Assembly: GCF_004319545.1 (NCBI RefSeq)
Contig: NZ_CP036313.1
Location: 3,164,501 to 3,228,500, forward strand
Source of the DNA: Desulfobacter hydrogenophilus
GTDB lineage: Bacteria; Desulfobacterota; Desulfobacteria; Desulfobacterales; Desulfobacteraceae
Length of the DNA: 64,000 nt
Direction of reading: 5' to 3'
A model generated the notes under the pieces. The model was not told the origin of the DNA. It saw nothing but the letters and a program-made list of their open reading frames with translations, and searched no databases. The position numbers were made by a program, and so were the translations under genes. Shown piece after piece: positions 1-7,267 of this stretch (positions are counted from its first letter, which is position 1; every line of letters begins with the position of its first letter).

Positions 1-348
1 GCCTCCCACAGGTTTGTATATGTCAACAATCACATGGGTTTGAACTGCTTTATGGAGGTTGAACAGTGCCTCTTCATTAAAAGGTGTTCCCTGGCCCAAC
101 AGACCATAGACCAGCTCAATGGCCCTGGCATGTCCCACCACTTCCTCATGGTCTTTAAGTGGCTTACCCGAAACGGTTAAGCCCTCTTCAAGAACAAAAG
201 CGGTTTCCCCCAGGGTCAGGGTATTGCCCTCAATGGCCGTGGAGGTGTGAGTCCATAGGTTGCGCAGTTGGGTTATCAGGGCTTTTTGGAGGTCTTTGTC
301 CAGGTTTTTTAAAAAATCCATGAAGCGTGGGTCCAATTTAAAATCCAT
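1..348 (-). CDS. Fic family protein, N-terminal part (cut by window start)
   Basis: The first 116 residues of a Fic-domain protein, which typically transfers AMP or another nucleotide phosphate to target proteins. Residues about 36-41 carry the class II inhibitory-helix motif (S/T)xxxE(G/N), seen here as STAIEGN, followed by TLGET. The visible part ends in DIYKPVGG, the usual lead-in to the Fic core. The catalytic HPFxxGNGR loop lies outside the window and cannot be checked. I chose the ATG at 348, which overlaps the cas7 stop by 11 bases in another frame, so translation is probably coupled to cas7. The position is where cas4-cas1-cas2 normally sit in type I-C operons. Family assignment is fairly sure; a role in CRISPR biology is inference from position only. 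Confidence 0.85.
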   Translation of the reverse strand, partial: MDFKLDPRFMDFLKNLDKDLQKALITQLRNLWTHTSTAIEGNTLTLGETAFVLEEGLTVSGKPLKDHEEVVGHARAIELVYGLLGQGTPFNEEALFNLHKAVQTHVIVDIYKPVGG

Positions 349-1189
349 TAATGATTTCAGGTGTTAAACCGTCAAGCGCGCTTTTTAGTTCGTTCTCATC
401 AAAAGAACCATCGGAATTGACCTGCAAGGTGCGATGAACTTTTGCAGAAGAATATTGACCGGATTTATTGTTGTGTTTCCACCAGATGACCTTTTCAACA
501 TTCATGCTGCCTTCCGGGCGTGCCGAAGATGCGTCACCTTCAAATAATCTGGGTAAAACATTTTTAATCGTTTCGGCATCTTCATCATTGAATTCGGTTC
601 TTTCTGCAAGTTGGGGGCTCATGGCACCATAGGTCACATAAACAGCTTTGTCCACCCTGTGTTTCATGCCCATGGTATCGGAACTTTTCTTGGTTCCGTC
701 TCCCTCACCGCTCACACTTTTGGTGATTTGGGTACTTGTCACACTGACAGGTTCCACACTGAAAGCGGAATGAAGAGTAACAGGTCCGCGAATTGGTATG
801 GAAACGCCATCATTCTTAGACCCGCTGAAAGCAAAAAGCTGTCCAAAACTTCTTACATCAAGCCATTTCTGACAAGCAAGCTTTGCAGTTTCTTCCGGCT
901 TTGTTTTTTTACTATTGAACGCATCTTTGCCAAGGCCGAACTCTTTTGATTCAGCCCGGTTTCTCAAACTTGTGGAATCATCTTTTTTATTGTCATCGGA
1001 TTGAACAAATATGGATTGGCCGTCTGCCAGCAGACGATTGCGTATTTTCCTTTTCAGGCAGACATCTGATATTTCGCCAAAACCTTCATAGTCAACCCTT
1101 GGCCTGTTACCGTTTAAAGGATCTCCATTGGGGTTTGCATTTTTCACGCTGAAAATTACCGCAAAATCAATTTTGTGTTCAAGACTCAT
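338..1189 (-). CDS. cas7: Type I-C Cascade backbone protein Cas7 (Csd2)
   Basis: A 283-residue Cas7/Csd2-family protein that polymerises along the crRNA to form the backbone of the type I-C Cascade. The N-terminus has the family signature NANPNGDP within the first 25 residues, and length fits the family. It lies 14 bases downstream of cas8c and overlaps the Fic start by 11 bases, so cas3-cas5-cas8-cas7-fic reads as one transcript. No frame problem is visible. Confidence 0.95.
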   Translation of the reverse strand: MSLEHKIDFAVIFSVKNANPNGDPLNGNRPRVDYEGFGEISDVCLKRKIRNRLLADGQSIFVQSDDNKKDDSTSLRNRAESKEFGLGKDAFNSKKTKPEETAKLACQKWLDVRSFGQLFAFSGSKNDGVSIPIRGPVTLHSAFSVEPVSVTSTQITKSVSGEGDGTKKSSDTMGMKHRVDKAVYVTYGAMSPQLAERTEFNDEDAETIKNVLPRLFEGDASSARPEGSMNVEKVIWWKHNNKSGQYSSAKVHRTLQVNSDGSFDENELKSALDGLTPEIINGF

Positions 1190-1203: not shown

Positions 1204-1590
1204 TTATTCGTTCTCTTTGTTTTGATTTGATTTATTTTGCCACGCCTGTTTCTGGCAGTGATATCCAAGAAGGAACTCTCCGGACAATGGCTTTTCGCTG
1301 GTGAAGTCATCTGGGGAAAATGCCTCAAAGATTGAATCCAGTTCTTTTGTCCTGTTAACTAAAAATCCGGCTCTGTTGGATTTGAGCCTCTGCATATAAG
1401 GCTGGAGTGCGAGTTCAATATTACGCCAGGTCGAAAACGGGTGGTCCGCAAACCGTTGCATAAGCCTTGCAGCTGTTGTCGGCCTGTTCTCTCCACCCAC
1501 ATAAAGAGCGGTTTCTTCGATTTTTTCTGCAATAGCCAACAATCGTCCATAAAGATAATCCCTGGTTGTCCTTTCTTCTTCTAAAGCCAT
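1204..1590 (-). CDS. cas11c: Cas11c small subunit from an internal start in cas8c
   Basis: Type I-C systems are known to make a separate small subunit, Cas11, from an internal start codon in the 3' part of cas8c. Here an in-frame ATG at 1590 (MALEEERTT...) is preceded by AAAAGGAGA (core at 1601-1605), a strong ribosome-binding site about 9-10 bases upstream. The product would be 128 residues, helical and charged, which matches Cas11c size. The internal site is seen in the sequence; function is from family knowledge. Confidence 0.8.
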   Translation of the reverse strand: MALEEERTTRDYLYGRLLAIAEKIEETALYVGGENRPTTAARLMQRFADHPFSTWRNIELALQPYMQRLKSNRAGFLVNRTKELDSIFEAFSPDDFTSEKPLSGEFLLGYHCQKQAWQNKSNQNKENE

Positions 1591-3195
1591 TTTGTATTCT
1601 CTCCTTTTATTTTGTTGGGGGTGTCGAAGATAAAAACCTTTGTAAAGGGCACAGGTAATCCCAAGATTTCTTTCCCATTCCCATTTTTCACAATTATGCC
1701 GGTTACAGGTTCTGCGAACCGAAGAAAGAACAAGATCATGGGGGAAGTGCCTTCCGTCCACAATGCAGGGCAAAATTCGTTCAATGACACCTTTTTTAAG
1801 TTTTTCATTGCTTTTGAGAATATTGCCGTAAGCGGCTTCGGCAATGTTTCTGGGAGGCGGGCTGGAAACTGACCAGACAGTTTTTTTTGCGTTTTTCTTT
1901 TTACTTTCCGGGGTTGGGACAGTGAAACGCTGGGGCCAGGCAAATTCATAGTGCCATTTTTTCATTCGTTCAAGAAATTCGCTGGCCAGCAGTTCACGAT
2001 AGTATATGATTCCCATTCGCCCTGGTGTGGCGGAATCAAGGCCCATGATGATAATCTGTTCATTGGGATCTAATTTTGCGCGATAACCCGCCATGTATTT
2101 ATTAAGCAGATTTGAAAAAGACTCCCCTACGTCTATGGAATAATCCAGAGCAGAATTTTCTTTCTCCTCAGTTTTTTCTTGAAAAACAGGGTCTATATTG
2201 AGAAGGTTCCATGTACTTTCAAGCGGTTCTGGAGTCGTTTTGCCGGAAATCGCCCATGACACGAAAACCTGATCCCCATTCCGGAATCCTTGGCGGGAAA
2301 TCAGCCAGCGTAGTGCATTATGGGCTTTCTGAGTTACCTCATAACTGATACTGGTCGCCTGCCTTCCATTTGGATCAGTAAAACGTCCCCGGAATGTGAA
2401 CCCGGAAGAGTCATTTGCAGAGACCAGTTTGGCTTTATCCCCGGTGTGGCGGAGTTTGGCTGGGTGGTTAACTGCAATGGGGCTTGAATTTCCAGTTATA
2501 AAACAAAAGTCCGAAATATCTCCAGTCCGGGAATTATAGGCAATCCAGCTTTGCTGTAGCCTCTCATCTCGCCAGGTATTGCTTTCTGGTTCCCCTTCTT
2601 TTTCAACTGACCAGCAAACCAGAGCATCGCCAGGTTCAATCTCGACCTTGTCTTTATTTTGTCTTTTGTTTTTCGGTATTGCCGGAAGGACTTTAAATAT
2701 CAGGGGTGGATTCTTATCTTCTTCACCAGGCCAGTATGTCATTAGTTGATTGTTTTCATCAACGTACAATATTTTTGAGGCAATAAGGTCGGCCACCACT
2801 TGACCTTTTTTAATATATTTATAAACTGCAACAGCTTTTGGATGACTTTGTTCTGAAGAACACCATGCATTAAGCTGTTTTTCATAGTCTCCAAAAAAAC
2901 AGCTTTTTCTTCCGCCGTAGCCTGAATAGTCTTTAGCAACGTATTGAATCTTATCTGCCAAAGGATGTGGAGGCGGCAACTTTCCAGAACGCCCTGCAGA
3001 TTTTTCAGTTGCAGGGAGAATGATTTGGGTACCTTCAAGGACAAGGGCTCTCTTAAAACAACCATCGTCATCAATCACAATATTGATGTGCGCATTTTGC
3101 AACGTGTGGCTAATGGGCATTAGTTTATTCTCATCGGATAAGTCTAAACCCGTGCCACTCTCATAGGTGTCGTAAAGTTTGGCCATCCAACTCAT
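1204..3195 (-). CDS. cas8c: Type I-C Cascade large subunit Cas8c (Csd1)
   Basis: A 663-residue Csd1/Cas8c protein, the large Cascade subunit that recognises the PAM and recruits Cas3 in type I-C systems. Length is a little above the common 580-620 residues. The start overlaps the cas5c stop by 4 bases (ATGA type), so the two are translationally coupled. The C-terminal 128 residues are also an independent reading unit (Cas11c, listed separately). Assignment rests on overall sequence character and on operon position between cas5c and cas7. Confidence 0.93.
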   Translation of the reverse strand: MSWMAKLYDTYESGTGLDLSDENKLMPISHTLQNAHINIVIDDDGCFKRALVLEGTQIILPATEKSAGRSGKLPPPHPLADKIQYVAKDYSGYGGRKSCFFGDYEKQLNAWCSSEQSHPKAVAVYKYIKKGQVVADLIASKILYVDENNQLMTYWPGEEDKNPPLIFKVLPAIPKNKRQNKDKVEIEPGDALVCWSVEKEGEPESNTWRDERLQQSWIAYNSRTGDISDFCFITGNSSPIAVNHPAKLRHTGDKAKLVSANDSSGFTFRGRFTDPNGRQATSISYEVTQKAHNALRWLISRQGFRNGDQVFVSWAISGKTTPEPLESTWNLLNIDPVFQEKTEEKENSALDYSIDVGESFSNLLNKYMAGYRAKLDPNEQIIIMGLDSATPGRMGIIYYRELLASEFLERMKKWHYEFAWPQRFTVPTPESKKKNAKKTVWSVSSPPPRNIAEAAYGNILKSNEKLKKGVIERILPCIVDGRHFPHDLVLSSVRRTCNRHNCEKWEWERNLGITCALYKGFYLRHPQQNKRREYKMALEEERTTRDYLYGRLLAIAEKIEETALYVGGENRPTTAARLMQRFADHPFSTWRNIELALQPYMQRLKSNRAGFLVNRTKELDSIFEAFSPDDFTSEKPLSGEFLLGYHCQKQAWQNKSNQNKENE

Positions 3196-3896
3196 AACAC
3201 GGCCTCCTCTTCATCCACGGGTAAAACATTGTCCCCGAGTCCAAATGGTTTAGGTTCCATTTTGCGGATAAATCGTTTTTTGTCGCAGGTCTCCGGTCGG
3301 GGAAAATACAGAACCCCCTTTTTCATGACAGCCTGCCAGAATCGGGTACATAATTCTTTTTTGCCTGTTTCATCAGGATAATCAAAACTATGGAACATCA
3401 GTCCGAAGTTTAGTTCATCAATATTATCATAGGCCCCGTCTCCCTCACCAAAAAGGCAGGGCTCCACATATCCCTGACAGTCCCGGGTGCCCAGAAAAAT
3501 ATCCTGGCGCCCGCCTTTTTCAAGCATTCTTTTGGCGATATTGAAATGTTTGCCTTCAATCTGATCCTTTTTCAATTCCGGGCGGAATTCATTCCATTCA
3601 AAATGGGCATGAACCTGATATTCTACCTTATGCAGAAAGGTATAAATGGCCAGGGTATTTCCGCCGCCCCAGACCAGGGGCTTTGTCCCTTTGGTTTGGG
3701 TTTGAATGGACTTGATGACCCTTATTTTATCCACATACCAGATAATTGTGGGTTTCCAGTAAATGGACTTTAAAACGCCTTTGATCGCTTCATAGGTGGG
3801 GATATGGTAACTGCATTTTTCTCCGCCGGTTTTGGTCACCGGGTCGGTGAATAATGCATATCTTCCCCACAGCCTGAAGCTGATGTCATTTCTCAT
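3192..3896 (-). CDS. cas5c: Type I-C Cas5 (Cas5c/Cas5d) pre-crRNA endonuclease
   Basis: A 234-residue Cas5 of the Dvulg subtype. In type I-C there is no Cas6, and Cas5 cleaves the pre-crRNA repeat itself and stays bound to the 5' handle. The catalytic residues described for the Bacillus halodurans protein (Tyr46, Lys116, His117) appear at exactly these positions here: Y46 in KSIYW, and K116-H117 in EGKHF. The protein is therefore predicted to be active. Spacing is 12 bases from the cas3 stop upstream and a 4-base overlap with cas8c downstream. Start is the ATG at 3896. Confidence 0.95.
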   Translation of the reverse strand: MRNDISFRLWGRYALFTDPVTKTGGEKCSYHIPTYEAIKGVLKSIYWKPTIIWYVDKIRVIKSIQTQTKGTKPLVWGGGNTLAIYTFLHKVEYQVHAHFEWNEFRPELKKDQIEGKHFNIAKRMLEKGGRQDIFLGTRDCQGYVEPCLFGEGDGAYDNIDELNFGLMFHSFDYPDETGKKELCTRFWQAVMKKGVLYFPRPETCDKKRFIRKMEPKPFGLGDNVLPVDEEEAVL

Positions 3897-3908: not shown

Positions 3909-5588
3909 TCAAATAATAGGTGTTTCCATTTCATTGACAACTTCAGTGGATACGCCAAATTTCGGATTGTAATGCTGCTCGTCCAGGTAATAGATCTCTT
4001 CTCCCTTTTGAACAGGGTGTACGGCCTGGGCTTTGACTAACTTATTCCAGACATTGGGAAACAGGTTGACACTGTATTTTTGTGCTTTTTTCAATAACTC
4101 ATATGTTTTGGCAGGCTCATATGCTGCACACAGATCTGCCACAATGCTTTTCCCTTCTTTATTATATTGAACAATTACAGCCTGGGTTGGGGCGTCAATG
4201 GATTTAAAGATCCTGCCGGCTGTTTTAAAAGACTGCTGCAAACTGAAAGTGGCCTTTTGAGCATCTTTTTCCCGACCGACATTGAGCGGGTTATCACTTA
4301 GCAGGTTCAGCAATGTGTCCTGTCTTCCGGCCTGTTTTGCTGTCAAGGGGTACGTCATCTGATCAGCCCGTTCATAAAAATAATAAGAGAAATATCTATC
4401 CATGGACATAGGGCTTAAAAAATCTTCATGTCCTTTTTCTTCCAGAACCCGTTTGGCCTTATCCCTGCCTGTTTTTATATCTGTCAGCAAATCAATGGAT
4501 TCATTGTCAGGGTTGACTACATACACCTGGGAAATGTCATTGTTTCCATTCCGGTTGCAGCGGCCTGCTGCCTGGGCAATGGAGTCGAGACCTGCCAGAA
4601 ACCGGATCACAGAATTAAAATCAACATCAACGCCTGCTTCAATAAGCTGTGTTGAGATACAAAGTAGCGGAAGTTTGTTATCCAGGCGTTGTCTAATCTC
4701 ATCCAGAATTTCAGTCCGGTGCGCGGGACAAAGGCTGGTACTTAAATGGAAAACAATATTTCCATCATCCCCTTGGTTCATTAGATCGGCACACATCTCA
4801 TACAGTTGCCTTGCCCAATCCTTGGTATTTACGATTACAAGGCAATTGCCTTTTTCCTGAACCTGGGCGACCGCCAGATCTGCAATTTGTTCTTTGGTCC
4901 AGCCACCCGGCCGGGTTCTGTTTTCAATGTCTACTCTTTTTAGTTCTCTAAATAGGTCAGCTGTATCTCCCGCCAATTCATTTTCTGCAGGAATCTCAAG
5001 CGCACCATATTTTTTGTTGACACAGTTAAGCACCGGCTGGGTGGCGGTACAAAGCACCGCAGTGGTTCCGGCATGATCTGTTAAAAATTTAAGTCCGTTG
5101 CAAAACAGGTGAATACAGTTAATGGGAAGGCATTGAATTTCATCAAAGATGATAACGGCGTTCGCCAGGTTGTGCATCCGTCTGGGTCCTCTGGTGCCGC
5201 CGCCGAATAAAGCCTCAAGAAATTGGACCATCGTGGTGAAAATGACAGGTGCGTCCCAGTTCTCAGAAGATAGTTTGGACTGCCAGGTCTGCTTTTCCGG
5301 TTCAAGATTGGAGTGGTGTTCAAGTACCCAGGGATTTTCATCTCCAGCCTGCTCCAACACGTTCCTGATTTCCCGGGCATTCTGGTCAATGATCGACGTA
5401 TAGGGAATGACATAAATAATGTGATCCAGTTCATGCTTTTGGGCGTGATGAAGGGCATAACGCATGGAAGCAAATGTTTTTCCGCCTCCGGTTGGAACCG
5501 TTAACAAATATAGGCCTTGTTGTTTAATCGCGGCTTTCAGGCAATCTTTTGAAATTTTATTTCGTAATTCATCAACCCGGTTGCGCAC
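3909..5588 (-). CDS. cas3: Cas3 helicase portion (separated from HD part by frameshift)
   Basis: The SF2 helicase part of Cas3, which unwinds target DNA recruited by Cascade. Counted from a GTG at 5588: Walker A PTGGGKT at residues 32-38, DEIQ box at 149-152, TAT at 181-183, and a motif VI segment QAAGRCNRNG near residue 350. The frame is open upstream of the GTG and encodes more matching Cas3 sequence (IDWQIAINRLEEKLAGFNV) back to the A-run at 5642-5650. The GTG is therefore probably not a true start; the unit is the 3' portion of one split gene spanning 3909-6352. Whether an active full-length protein is made depends on the frameshift, discussed in the findings. Confidence 0.92.
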   Translation of the reverse strand: MRNRVDELRNKISKDCLKAAIKQQGLYLLTVPTGGGKTFASMRYALHHAQKHELDHIIYVIPYTSIIDQNAREIRNVLEQAGDENPWVLEHHSNLEPEKQTWQSKLSSENWDAPVIFTTMVQFLEALFGGGTRGPRRMHNLANAVIIFDEIQCLPINCIHLFCNGLKFLTDHAGTTAVLCTATQPVLNCVNKKYGALEIPAENELAGDTADLFRELKRVDIENRTRPGGWTKEQIADLAVAQVQEKGNCLVIVNTKDWARQLYEMCADLMNQGDDGNIVFHLSTSLCPAHRTEILDEIRQRLDNKLPLLCISTQLIEAGVDVDFNSVIRFLAGLDSIAQAAGRCNRNGNNDISQVYVVNPDNESIDLLTDIKTGRDKAKRVLEEKGHEDFLSPMSMDRYFSYYFYERADQMTYPLTAKQAGRQDTLLNLLSDNPLNVGREKDAQKATFSLQQSFKTAGRIFKSIDAPTQAVIVQYNKEGKSIVADLCAAYEPAKTYELLKKAQKYSVNLFPNVWNKLVKAQAVHPVQKGEEIYYLDEQHYNPKFGVSTEVVNEMETPII

Positions 5589-5620
5589 ATTAAAACCAGC
5601 CAGCTTTTCTTCCAGCCGGT

Positions 5621-6352
5621 TTATGGCAATTTGCCAGTCAATTTTTTTTTATTTCGAAATCCCTTATTTTCGGGGCATTCAAAATCTGCGCTGTCAATAC
5701 GGTCTGCATCAATAAGACAACTGAACAGAAAACGGGTGAAAAATCCAAGCCTGAAATGCTTTAGACGGTCAGGCTCTTTTTTCCCCGGAGAAACAATACC
5801 AGCAACTTGCTTTAAAATTTGTTTTAAAAAATTTTCTGTTGCAATGTGTTCAATGCACTCTTTTATTTTCAGATCTGCTGCGTCAAGGCTTGTTTGAAGA
5901 TGAGTTAATTCATCATTTTTTTGGATTCTTTTCAGAAAACCATTTTTACCTTCTATGCGCAGACAATCAATCATACCTCCGTGATGGGAAGCCAGACATA
6001 CCGCAAGAATCTGTCCAACTAAATTGCCCTGAGGACCATAACGGTTAAAGCGCTGCCATATCCATTGAGCGCCTGCTGTCGAATGGTCAATTTTGCCTTT
6101 AAGATTTTTGGTGTCATTATTTGTATCATCAATATCAGGGTTGAGAAGACCTGTTTCTGTTTTTATATAATTTTGGAAATTAGTGCTGTATTTGCCTAAA
6201 TCATGGAGCAGGCCAAGCAATTCTCCTGCTTTAGGTAATCCAATTTTCGATGTAAGTTGTTTACAGATATTTGCCACACCCGTTAAATGTTCGTATACTG
6301 TTTGTATCTCATCATCGTGGCTGCGGTGGTGGGCAACAAAGTTACTTTTCAT
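5621..6352 (-). CDS. cas3: Cas3 HD nuclease portion (5' part of split cas3)
   Basis: The HD phosphohydrolase/nuclease domain that nicks and degrades target DNA in type I systems. From the ATG at 6352, chosen because AAGGG lies about 5-6 bases upstream, the metal-binding motifs are H22, H50-D51 (LLHDLGKYS), H90 (DHSTAGAQ) and H123-H124 (SHHGG). The frame ends at 5621, just after a run of nine A (5642-5650 as T on the plus strand). One extra A, or two fewer, would join it to the helicase frame, giving a Cas3 of about 800 residues, the normal size. This is the first gene of the operon. Confidence 0.92.
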   Translation of the reverse strand: MKSNFVAHHRSHDDEIQTVYEHLTGVANICKQLTSKIGLPKAGELLGLLHDLGKYSTNFQNYIKTETGLLNPDIDDTNNDTKNLKGKIDHSTAGAQWIWQRFNRYGPQGNLVGQILAVCLASHHGGMIDCLRIEGKNGFLKRIQKNDELTHLQTSLDAADLKIKECIEHIATENFLKQILKQVAGIVSPGKKEPDRLKHFRLGFFTRFLFSCLIDADRIDSADFECPENKGFRNKKKLTGKLP

Positions 6353-7267
6353 GGTGACCCTTTTTTGTTTCAAGAAATAATCTGTTTAAAGTTTCTACGG
6401 GATACTTCTGCTTTTTTTAAGATACGCTTGCGCATATATTTCCTTTTTATGAATTAGATTTTCACAAGTTTTAATTCCTGGGCAATGGCATGACTCTGTG
6501 TTTGATGCGCAGGACAAGATTATAGCTCCAACTGTTAGGGATGATGTCCAAGTGGCCCACGGTGGTTCGTATTGTGGTGGCAAGCATGAAAAAGGTGGCG
6601 GTAAAATGTTTGGTAGCCCGTCTGGGGTTCATGGGCCAGCGCTCGGATGCTGGGGCGGTTTCCGGAAAATCGTGTCTTTTTGAATTTTTATTTGATTGGA
6701 AATCAGGATTTTGCCCAATTCTGTTTAAAGCTAACCGTGGCCGATAAGAGTTTGCCGGCCAGCTCAATGCGGTCAGACGGCCCTTTTGGGATACCGATTT
6801 TTGAGGCCAATTGTGTCAGAGTCCAGCTGCCTGACCGGCGAAATACGCGGATATTTTCCTCGATAGAGTTTAAGTCTTTGAGCATAAAGTTATAGAAACC
6901 ATATCGTCTCTTTTGTGTCAATTAATAAAATAGATTTATAGATGTTAACCCTGTTTAATTTTTCACATGATCGACAAACAGGCTGGATTATGAAATAGCA
7001 TTGTAGTGTTGCAGGGTCGACAAACGGGCAGCGTTGCCCACCATAGTCCCTAACAGTGGCCACAAAAAGCGTGCCCACCCTACCGAACTTTATTTTTCAG
7101 ATTGCGATATGAATTGATTTTTACCGGTAGTTAAGGTCAAGAAAAATAAACTTTAAGTTGCTTTGAAGATTTTTCCATATTTAGAATTGATAGTCTGTCT
7201 TGACATGGCTGGGCTCATGGCCTAAAAATTAAAAACCTTTAGATAAACCCTAACCCGTACAGGCAAT
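6353..7267. other. Gene-poor stretch between cas3 and tamB with repeat-like debris
   Basis: No convincing gene in 915 bases. It must hold the promoter of the leftward cas operon and that of tamB. At 7019-7080 lies GC-rich text with paired GCGTTGCCCACC and GCGTGCCCACCC blocks, resembling short repetitive elements scattered in many bacterial genomes. At 6531-6580 a related GTTAGGG / GTGGCCCACGGTGG block occurs. A 72-residue minus-strand reading frame at 6703-6921 has a weak helix-turn-helix look (LTQLASKIGIPKGPSDR) but no recognisable family. I see no CRISPR repeats here. Confidence 0.4.

What the first reader, a model, noticed from the sequence alone, without database searches (positions are those of the whole stretch)
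1..348. Fic-domain gene inside a type I-C CRISPR-cas operon, coupled to cas7
Seen: the Fic start codon overlaps the cas7 stop by 11 bases, so it is almost certainly in the same transcript as the Cascade genes. Known: type I-C operons normally continue with cas4-cas1-cas2 at this place. Inference: a toxin-like AMP/NMP transferase with its own inhibitory motif is linked to interference, perhaps as a back-up or guard system that acts when Cascade is lost or blocked. I know of no described role for Fic in type I-C.
Basis: partly seen in the sequence, partly recalled or inferred. Interest (0 to 1): 0.75.

Follow-up and report, generated by a model that had tools for sequence, protein, structure and literature searches.

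The report
Fic enzyme embedded in CRISPR operons
A protein-modifying enzyme with its own built-in brake sits inside a bacterial CRISPR immunity operon, at a boundary where many relatives also carry such genes, so it is probably a second line of defence packed into the same locus rather than a chance insertion.

Summary
In a Desulfobacter genome a complete type I-C operon reads cas3-cas5-cas8c-cas7-FIC-cas4-cas1-cas2-array. The Fic is unbroken, with HPFFDGNGR and an N-terminal STAIEG brake. It overlaps cas4 by one base.

It is not a chance insertion. In a 94-row Fic tree all 35 CRISPR-linked rows fall in one 45-row clade; 0 of 49 rows outside are linked. The effector|cas4 boundary holds extra DNA in 35 of 54 readable I-C loci of the class: unbroken stand-alone Fic 14, broken Fic 3, RhuM 8 (RhuM-Fic fusion in both of these that were scanned), other or unknown 10. 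It was empty in 9 of 9 readable loci from outside the class.

Fic follows the adaptation genes, not Cascade: in two pairs within the genus the effector proteins are 19-35% identical while fic, cas4, cas1 and cas2 are 90-97%, with the break at the fic start.

Best reading: a self-restrained, second-line defence toxin carried as operon cargo. The guard idea is untested. Fic in type I cas loci was reported in 2013; the dedicated clade, boundary site and co-inheritance appear new in the library searched.

The parts
1..321 (-). Fic-domain protein, N-terminal 107 codons from the probable start Met10; the gene continues left of the window to genome position C1:3164006 (271 aa in all)
322..348 (-). 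Possible 9-codon upstream extension of fic (ATG at 348-346) that overlaps the cas7 stop by 11 bases; probably not the real start
   Evidence: twenty closest homologues 270-277 aa; alignment; DNA similarity starts near Met10; start comparison
214..243 (-). Codons 36-45 (STAIEGNTLT), holding the class II type inhibitory motif (S/T)xxxE(G/N)
   Evidence: sequence; exact STAIEG in 75 and STALEG in 10 of 94 Fic rows
338..1189 (-). cas7c (Csd2), last gene of the effector set
   Evidence: TIGR02589 325 bits, cut-off 182
1204..3195 (-). cas8c (Csd1)
   Evidence: TIGR01863 368 bits, cut-off 219
3192..3896 (-). cas5c
   Evidence: TIGR01876 255 bits, cut-off 85
3909..5588 (-). cas3 helicase part, separate ORF here
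   Evidence: TIGR01587 124 bits, cut-off 102; one ORF with the HD part in six relatives
5621..6373 (-). cas3 HD nuclease part, separate ORF here
   Evidence: TIGR01596 121 bits, cut-off 43

Best explanation
The gene encodes a class II-type, self-inhibited Fic nucleotidyl-transferase that is carried as second-line defence cargo at the boundary between the effector and adaptation cassettes of a type I-C CRISPR operon. Shown: position and spacing, unbroken catalytic and inhibitory motifs, one CRISPR-linked clade, co-inheritance with cas4-cas1-cas2, purifying selection. Inferred: it is made together with the Cas proteins, held off by its own N-terminal brake, and, when infection or stress releases the brake, it modifies a host protein and stops the cell (abortive infection). 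This would parallel the published picture of Doc/Fic and RhuM-Doc toxins and PrrC inside restriction-modification operons. It need not bind any particular Cas protein.
For: Operon and motifs. All 35 CRISPR-linked rows fall in one clade of 45 (quick tree, SH-aLRT 95; careful tree of 53 rows, 99/96). Linked contexts include three deep I-C effector lineages and I-E, so Fic is not specific to one Cas partner. Boundary census: 35 of 54 effector|cas4 boundaries hold over 300 bases of extra DNA against 4 of 57 for cas4-cas1, 1 of 58 for cas1-cas2, 0 of 47 for cas5-cas8, 0 of 53 for cas8-cas7, 5 of 41 for cas3-cas5. A second Fic architecture, RhuM-Fic with HPFTDGNKR, sits at the same boundary. dN/dS of fic is 0.11-0.22, like cas4. 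PADLOC defence models PDC-S04 (1.1e-31) and SoFic (5.8e-22) match. Sofic is described as an abortive-infection AMPylator (PMC12249575, abstract). RhuM/Doc toxins in R-M operons: PMC3710099 (passages).
Against: No activity, target or trigger was tested. Non-toxin-like genes (Bro-N, 23S-IVP-like) and unidentified DNA occupy the same boundary, which a mere tolerant site would also explain. Fic is broken in 3 of 59 I-C loci (an insertion in G128, remnants in G227 and G352), so it is dispensable there. Most I-C loci of the class lack it. The NCBIfam SoFic model scores 19 bits against a cut-off of 550.
Confidence: 0.45

Rival explanations
1. Tolerated passenger: the boundary between the two cassettes is a recombination point at which assorted small genes land, stay while they happen to be co-transcribed, and decay. 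Fic is one of them and does nothing for CRISPR.
For: Bro-N, 23S-IVP-like and unidentified DNA occupy the same boundary; broken Fic in G128, G227 and G352 beside cas1 without stops.
Against: A single Fic clade holds all linked cases; Fic domains make up 25 of 35 filled boundaries, broken ones included, if all 8 RhuM hits are fusions (fusion confirmed in the 2 scanned); dN/dS 0.11-0.22; 0 of 9 readable I-C loci from outside the class have an insert.
Confidence: 0.22
2. Guard: Fic is held inactive by a Cas protein or by normal CRISPR function and is released when a phage blocks the system, as PrrC is by the PrrI restriction enzyme.
For: Operon position; published PrrC precedent (PMC3710099, passages); self-inhibition means that some release signal is needed (inference).
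Against: G100 keeps an unbroken Fic with only the last 14 bases of cas7 and the first 174 of cas4, and no Cas1c match; clade members sit beside unrelated I-E genes; Fic does not co-vary with Cas7 or Cas8.
Confidence: 0.15
3. Regulator of adaptation: Fic nucleotidylates Cas1, Cas2 or Cas4 and so tunes spacer acquisition.
For: Fic identity tracks cas1 (Spearman 0.465), cas2 (0.378), cas4 (0.297) and not the effector genes; partial fic~cas1 given cas7 0.463, permutation p 0.001; fic-cas4 overlap or closeness; the block fic-cas4-cas1-cas2 stays when the effector changes.
Against: Neighbouring genes that share a recombination block co-vary without any interaction; in I-E loci the Cas1 is of another family; Fic is broken in three loci with cas1 kept.
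Confidence: 0.1
4. Addiction module that keeps the CRISPR locus in the genome by killing cells that lose it.
For: Toxin-type family; the Fic left behind in G100 after loss of the I-C genes could be read as a survivor.
Against: That survivor lives without a detected I-C Cas1; no separate antitoxin gene lies between cas7, fic and cas4; no CRISPR-repeat-like mini element in the operon (best 19 of 32 matches, outside it).
Confidence: 0.06

Closest known systems
Fic/DOC toxin genes in type I cas loci (Zhang, Doak, Ye 2013, PMC3936711; passages seen)
   Same: Fic-domain genes, some with a Virulence_RhuM domain, inside type I cas loci; coupling of immunity and dormancy/suicide proposed there
   Different: 10 sequences, only two with the exact HPFxxGNG motif; the passages read describe no dedicated clade, boundary site or co-inheritance with the adaptation genes
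RhuM-Doc / Doc toxins and PrrC in restriction-modification operons (PMC3710099; passages seen)
   Same: Same two architectures (Doc/Fic alone, RhuM-Doc) embedded in a defence operon and seen as a further defence layer
   Different: Host operon is R-M there, CRISPR-Cas here
Sofic abortive-infection AMPylator (PMC12249575; abstract seen)
   Same: Fic domain; PADLOC SoFic model match 5.8e-22
   Different: 271 aa here against a 361-position model matched over 49-244, so the C-terminal region is not matched; cas4 follows directly where Sofic has a small antitoxin gene
Fic structures BT_2513 (3cuc) and FICD
   Same: Best sequence and fold matches
   Different: No CRISPR context known to me for these (recalled)
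CreTA / CrePA CRISPR-regulated toxins (review PMC12737573; passages seen)
   Same: Toxin tied to a CRISPR locus
   Different: CreTA is silenced by a crRNA-like RNA; no repeat-like element was found in this operon

Membership tests
Fic/DOC family, class II (self-inhibited by an N-terminal motif) | Pfam Fic domain over the curated cut-off | tested here: met
   61.6 bits, cut-off 24
Fic/DOC family, class II (self-inhibited by an N-terminal motif) | Catalytic HPFx(D/E)GNGR | tested here: met
   HPFFDGNGR here; exactly so in 71 of 94 rows, HPFWDGNGR in 12, other or no match in 11
Fic/DOC family, class II (self-inhibited by an N-terminal motif) | (S/T)xxxE(G/N) N-terminal to the core in the same chain | tested here: met
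   STAIEG at residues 36-41; STAIEG in 75 and STALEG in 10 of 94 rows; the definition is recalled
Fic/DOC family, class II (self-inhibited by an N-terminal motif) | Fic fold | tested here: met
   Model pLDDT 74, pTM 0.80; Foldseek to 3cuc E 3.6e-10, TM 0.66/0.70; the stretch 38-57 at the brake has low confidence
Fic/DOC family, class II (self-inhibited by an N-terminal motif) | Nucleotidyl-transfer activity held off by the brake | not testable with these tools
   -
Type I-C CRISPR-Cas | cas3-cas5c-cas8c-cas7-cas4-cas1c-cas2 and array | tested here: met
   cas3 is in two ORFs here
Core cas gene | Present in most loci of the subtype | tested here: not met
   Next to Cas1c, unbroken, in 14 of 62 genomes (one of the 14 cut by a contig end) and broken in 3 more
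SoFic defence system | Reaches the curated NCBIfam equivalog cut-off | tested here: not met
   19.1 bits, cut-off 550
SoFic defence system | C-terminal domain of the full-length family | tested here: not met
   match covers 49-244 of 361 positions
Class I Fic toxin-antitoxin pair | Separate small antitoxin gene next to fic | tested here: not met
   cas7 and cas4 flank fic directly
CreTA-type CRISPR-regulated toxin | Degenerate repeat giving a crRNA-like antitoxin near the toxin | tested here: not met
   best 19 of 32 matches, outside the operon

The most novel reading that the evidence does not exclude
The boundary between the effector and adaptation cassettes is a dedicated cargo bay of CRISPR operons in Desulfobacterota. 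It holds interchangeable, self-restrained Fic-type toxins (stand-alone Fic or RhuM-Fic) that stay with the adaptation genes while whole effector sets are exchanged, and that act as a second line of defence, or guard, when CRISPR immunity fails. It would be the CRISPR counterpart of toxins embedded in restriction-modification operons.
Probability: 0.35. Interest if true: 0.8.

Novelty: new variant of a known kind. Interest (0 to 1): 0.62.

Why it matters
If right, type I CRISPR operons can carry built-in suicide or growth-arrest enzymes, as type III systems carry ancillary effectors, but without a known second messenger. Effector sets can be exchanged around a fixed Fic-plus-adaptation block, which makes it directly testable whether the embedded toxin responds to CRISPR failure, to infection, or to neither. 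It also marks the effector|cas4 boundary as a place to look for new accessory defence genes.

Tried and rejected
Chance insertion: rejected by the clade pattern (35 of 45 against 0 of 49; Fisher 4e-17, which ignores relatedness). Phage cargo: IMG/VR gave one weak relative (32% over 73 residues); of 50,697 phage records one matched at E <= 1e-20 (36% over 73% of the query). Plasmid cargo: 4 of 72,556 records at E <= 1e-40, 49-56% identity; I looked at two of the four regions in annotation and saw no cas gene listed. CRISPR-silenced toxin: no repeat-like element in the operon. Essential partner of Cascade: set aside because of the lack of co-variation and the effector swaps.

Retracted on the way: I first thought that genome G103 had no CRISPR system; one search found a Cas1e in it on another contig, so I do not claim that any clade member lives without CRISPR. 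PF01867 at 1e-10 evidently misses some I-E Cas1. Four Fic matches next to Cas1c that flags with one stop (G252, G265, G293, G350) were rechecked: for G252, G265 and G350 the match ends on the gene's own stop codon; for G293 the same follows from the ORF listed for the same contig (L013).

Led nowhere: literature searches for Fic with type I-C gave no paper on this link; the closest hits were off topic (passages). The gene-neighbourhood survey of Shmakov and others (2018, recalled) is not held, and its lists may include Fic or RhuM. The I-E association is thin: Fic within 6 kb in 3 of 44 Cas1e genomes (G093, G132, G002), and several linked I-E rows lie beyond the array or beside Cas1e fragments. 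The 5 of 41 wide cas3-cas5 gaps were not inspected.

Full report
What is there. The window lies at G000:C1:3164501-3228500 of a 5.16 Mb genome. Reading right to left, the - strand carries the cas3 HD part (5621-6373), the cas3 helicase part (3909-5588), cas5c, cas8c and cas7c (338-1189). Then comes the Fic gene, which runs out of the window to C1:3164006. Further left are cas4c, cas1c, cas2 and an array of ten 32-nt repeats. The cas genes are over the curated cut-offs of NCBIfam models. So this is a complete I-C operon with one extra gene between cas7 and cas4.

The start codon. From the first ATG the Fic is 280 aa and overlaps cas7 by 11 bases. The protein database lists this protein as 271 aa, which is the length from Met10; the 120 relatives listed are 267-289 aa. 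In relatives the start is at or next to codon 10. DNA similarity with a relative that has a different effector set begins two codons after the Met10 codon starts. I therefore place the start at 321, leaving 16 nt to the cas7 stop. At the other end fic and cas4 overlap by one base, with GGAAGGAG just before the cas4 ATG. Of 21 other loci examined there, 13 have 30 bases or less between fic and cas4, and 6 of those 13 have a Shine-Dalgarno-like sequence by a loose test. The intimate neighbour is cas4 rather than cas7.

The protein. Pfam Fic scores 61.6 bits. Of 94 Fic rows, the window's included, 71 have exactly HPFFDGNGR and 12 HPFWDGNGR; 75 have exactly STAIEG and 10 STALEG. The predicted model (pLDDT 74, pTM 0.80; the stretch at 38-57 at the brake is poor) matches BT_2513 and FICD best, as does the sequence profile.

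Is the CRISPR link more than chance? A scan of one genome per species (84,980) gave 122 relatives, of which the best 80 were kept. With 14 further sequences, counting the window, they made 94 Fic rows after duplicates were dropped. Linked means a cas gene, or a CRISPR array beside Fic, in the DNA held, looked for with cas proteins of I-C and I-E. All 35 linked rows are in one clade of 45; 0 of 49 outside are linked. The careful tree on 53 rows supports the clade at 99/96. Of the ten unlinked rows of the clade four have under 5 kb of DNA; of the 49 outside, five. One outside row (L052) has a four-copy repeat next to Fic, spaced about 66 bases and of unclear nature, which I did not count. Not all linked rows sit at the boundary: L014 and L034 lie some kilobases beyond the array, L118 just beyond it, L102 beside an array, L030 is divergent from I-E genes, L033 and L039 lie beside Cas1e fragments, L041 follows cas2, and L016 and L027 have irregular order. 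Cas systems of other types would have been missed if their proteins are too unlike the I-C and I-E queries.

How common is it? In 389 genomes of the class, Cas1c is over its cut-off in 62 and this Fic (E <= 1e-60) occurs in 39. Comparing coordinates, Fic stands next to Cas1c in 16 of the 39: 14 unbroken with Cas1c over the cut-off (G265 among them is cut by a contig end), G223 with a partial Cas1c, and G128 with a split Fic. G227 and G352 have remnants. Cas1e is over its cut-off in 44 of 389, and Fic lies within 6 kb in 3 of these.

The boundary is special. I examined 59 I-C loci: 58 of the 62 genomes plus G223; G024, G025, G079 and G358 were not fetched. Gene limits were estimated by extending tblastn matches to full query length. 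Gaps over 300 bases: cas7-cas4 33 of 48, cas3-cas4 (a third gene order) 2 of 6, cas4-cas1 4 of 57, cas1-cas2 1 of 58, cas5-cas8 0 of 47, cas8-cas7 0 of 53, cas3-cas5 5 of 41. The 35 filled effector|cas4 boundaries hold: unbroken stand-alone Fic 14; broken Fic 3; RhuM hits 8; Bro-N only 2; a 23S-IVP-like family 4 (Pfam run on two, both below its cut-off; the other two by their similar N-terminus); unidentified 4. Two of the eight RhuM proteins were scanned and both are RhuM-Fic fusions; HPFTDGNKR was seen in five; L137 and L150 look truncated or broken. A RhuM protein outside this census (L029, beside a stand-alone Fic, 229 aa) showed RhuM only. As a contrast I read 12 of 48 plasmid records with a related Cas7c, one per genus: 9 have cas4 within 55 bases of cas7 and none of the 9 has an insert; 3 have no cas4 listed there, and this gene table is incomplete. 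One of the nine, Nitratidesulfovibrio, is of the same phylum but another class. These counts are not corrected for relatedness.

What does Fic travel with? This genome and L011 share their upstream flank (83.6% DNA over 3.8 kb) and everything from the fic start through cas2 (90.7%). Their effector regions show no DNA match, and their effector proteins are 19-35% identical against 90-97% for fic, cas4, cas1 and cas2. A second pair of the genus, L093 and L094, shows the same: fic 91%, cas4 94%, cas1 96%, cas2 92%, effector 20-35%. Over 16 loci (120 pairs) fic identity correlates with cas1 0.465, cas2 0.378, cas4 0.297, but with cas7 0.058, cas8 0.003, cas5 0.038 and cas3 -0.029 (cas2, cas5 and cas3 on fewer pairs). 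The partial correlation with cas1 given cas7 is 0.463 (permutation p 0.001), and with cas7 given cas1 0.008 (p 0.43). In G100 an unbroken Fic, with the last 14 bases of cas7 and the first 174 of cas4 of an I-C locus, stands beside an array of another repeat type, with a different Cas1 11 kb away.

Selection. Pairwise dN/dS among Desulfobacter relatives is 0.11-0.22 for fic, 0.12-0.19 for cas4 and 0.05-0.08 for cas1. Residues that set the clade apart by the test are few: S123, F135, I211 and H228. Two of them are in the predicted beta-hairpin at 123-136, the part that in Fic proteins binds the target (recalled).

How it works. I favour a self-restrained nucleotidyl-transferase made with the Cas proteins and released in infection to stop the cell. 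Sofic is a published Fic described so (PMC12249575, abstract only). Doc/Fic and RhuM-Doc proteins embedded in restriction-modification operons have been proposed as a further defence layer, with PrrC as the known case of a toxin held off by its R-M partner (PMC3710099, passages only). The release signal and target are unknown. A guard needing I-C Cas proteins is disfavoured by G100 and by the I-E cases, but not excluded. A passenger is the strongest rival.

What is known. Zhang and others reported ten Fic/DOC genes in type I cas loci in 2013, some with RhuM (PMC3936711, passages). In the searches I saw no listing on a Fic clade tied to the effector|cas4 boundary; most listed papers were seen only as titles and abstract starts. 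The library holds only open-licence papers, so this is a limited statement. CreTA and CrePA were seen through a review (PMC12737573, passages).

Noticed in passing
window 5561-5660: cas3 is read as two ORFs (HD part and helicase part) with the frame changing near a run of nine A on the coding strand (5642-5650); six relatives checked have one ORF of 799-842 aa over both parts. It may be a real break, a slippage site or an assembly error; if real, interference may be impaired in this strain.
   Followed up: partly
L011, L093, L094, L096 against the window: Two deeply different I-C effector sets (19-35% protein identity) occur in one genus with the same fic-cas4-cas1-cas2 block; the exchange ends at the fic start.
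   Followed up: yes
L136, L138, L142, L145, L148, L165: RhuM hits at the same boundary; a RhuM-Fic fusion in the two scanned (L138, L145), with a Doc-like HPFTDGNKR motif in the first five of these loci.
   Followed up: partly
L131, L135, L151, L154, L159, L170: Bro-N proteins and a 192-204 aa family weakly like 23S rRNA intervening-sequence protein at the effector|cas4 or cas4|cas1 boundary.
   Followed up: partly
L127:9431-10955: An insertion of about 1.5 kb with a transposase-like gene (integrase core) splits fic in an I-C operon of G128.
   Followed up: partly
L012:2775-8403: A third I-C effector lineage: its 755-aa large subunit has no match in NCBIfam or Pfam at the thresholds used but matches PADLOC Cas8c model PDLC01562 (642 bits); cas3 follows cas7.
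   Followed up: partly
L156:5594-6655: A different Fic (353 aa, HPFRDGNGRVSR) between cas4 and cas1.
   Followed up: no
L102:8819-11363: Relic of an I-C locus (unbroken fic, last bases of cas7, first 174 bases of cas4) directly beside an array with another repeat.
   Followed up: yes
L032:10001-11557: Type I-E operon with Fic and a Bro-N gene between cas6e and cas1e, the same module boundary as in I-C.
   Followed up: partly
L009 and L010: Two further cas1 genes of this genome (C1:1601375 and C1:2194553), each close to a CRISPR array.
   Followed up: no
L052:4899-5096: Four copies of a repeat spaced about 66 bases right before a Fic outside the CRISPR-linked clade (Thiomargarita); nature unclear.
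   Followed up: no
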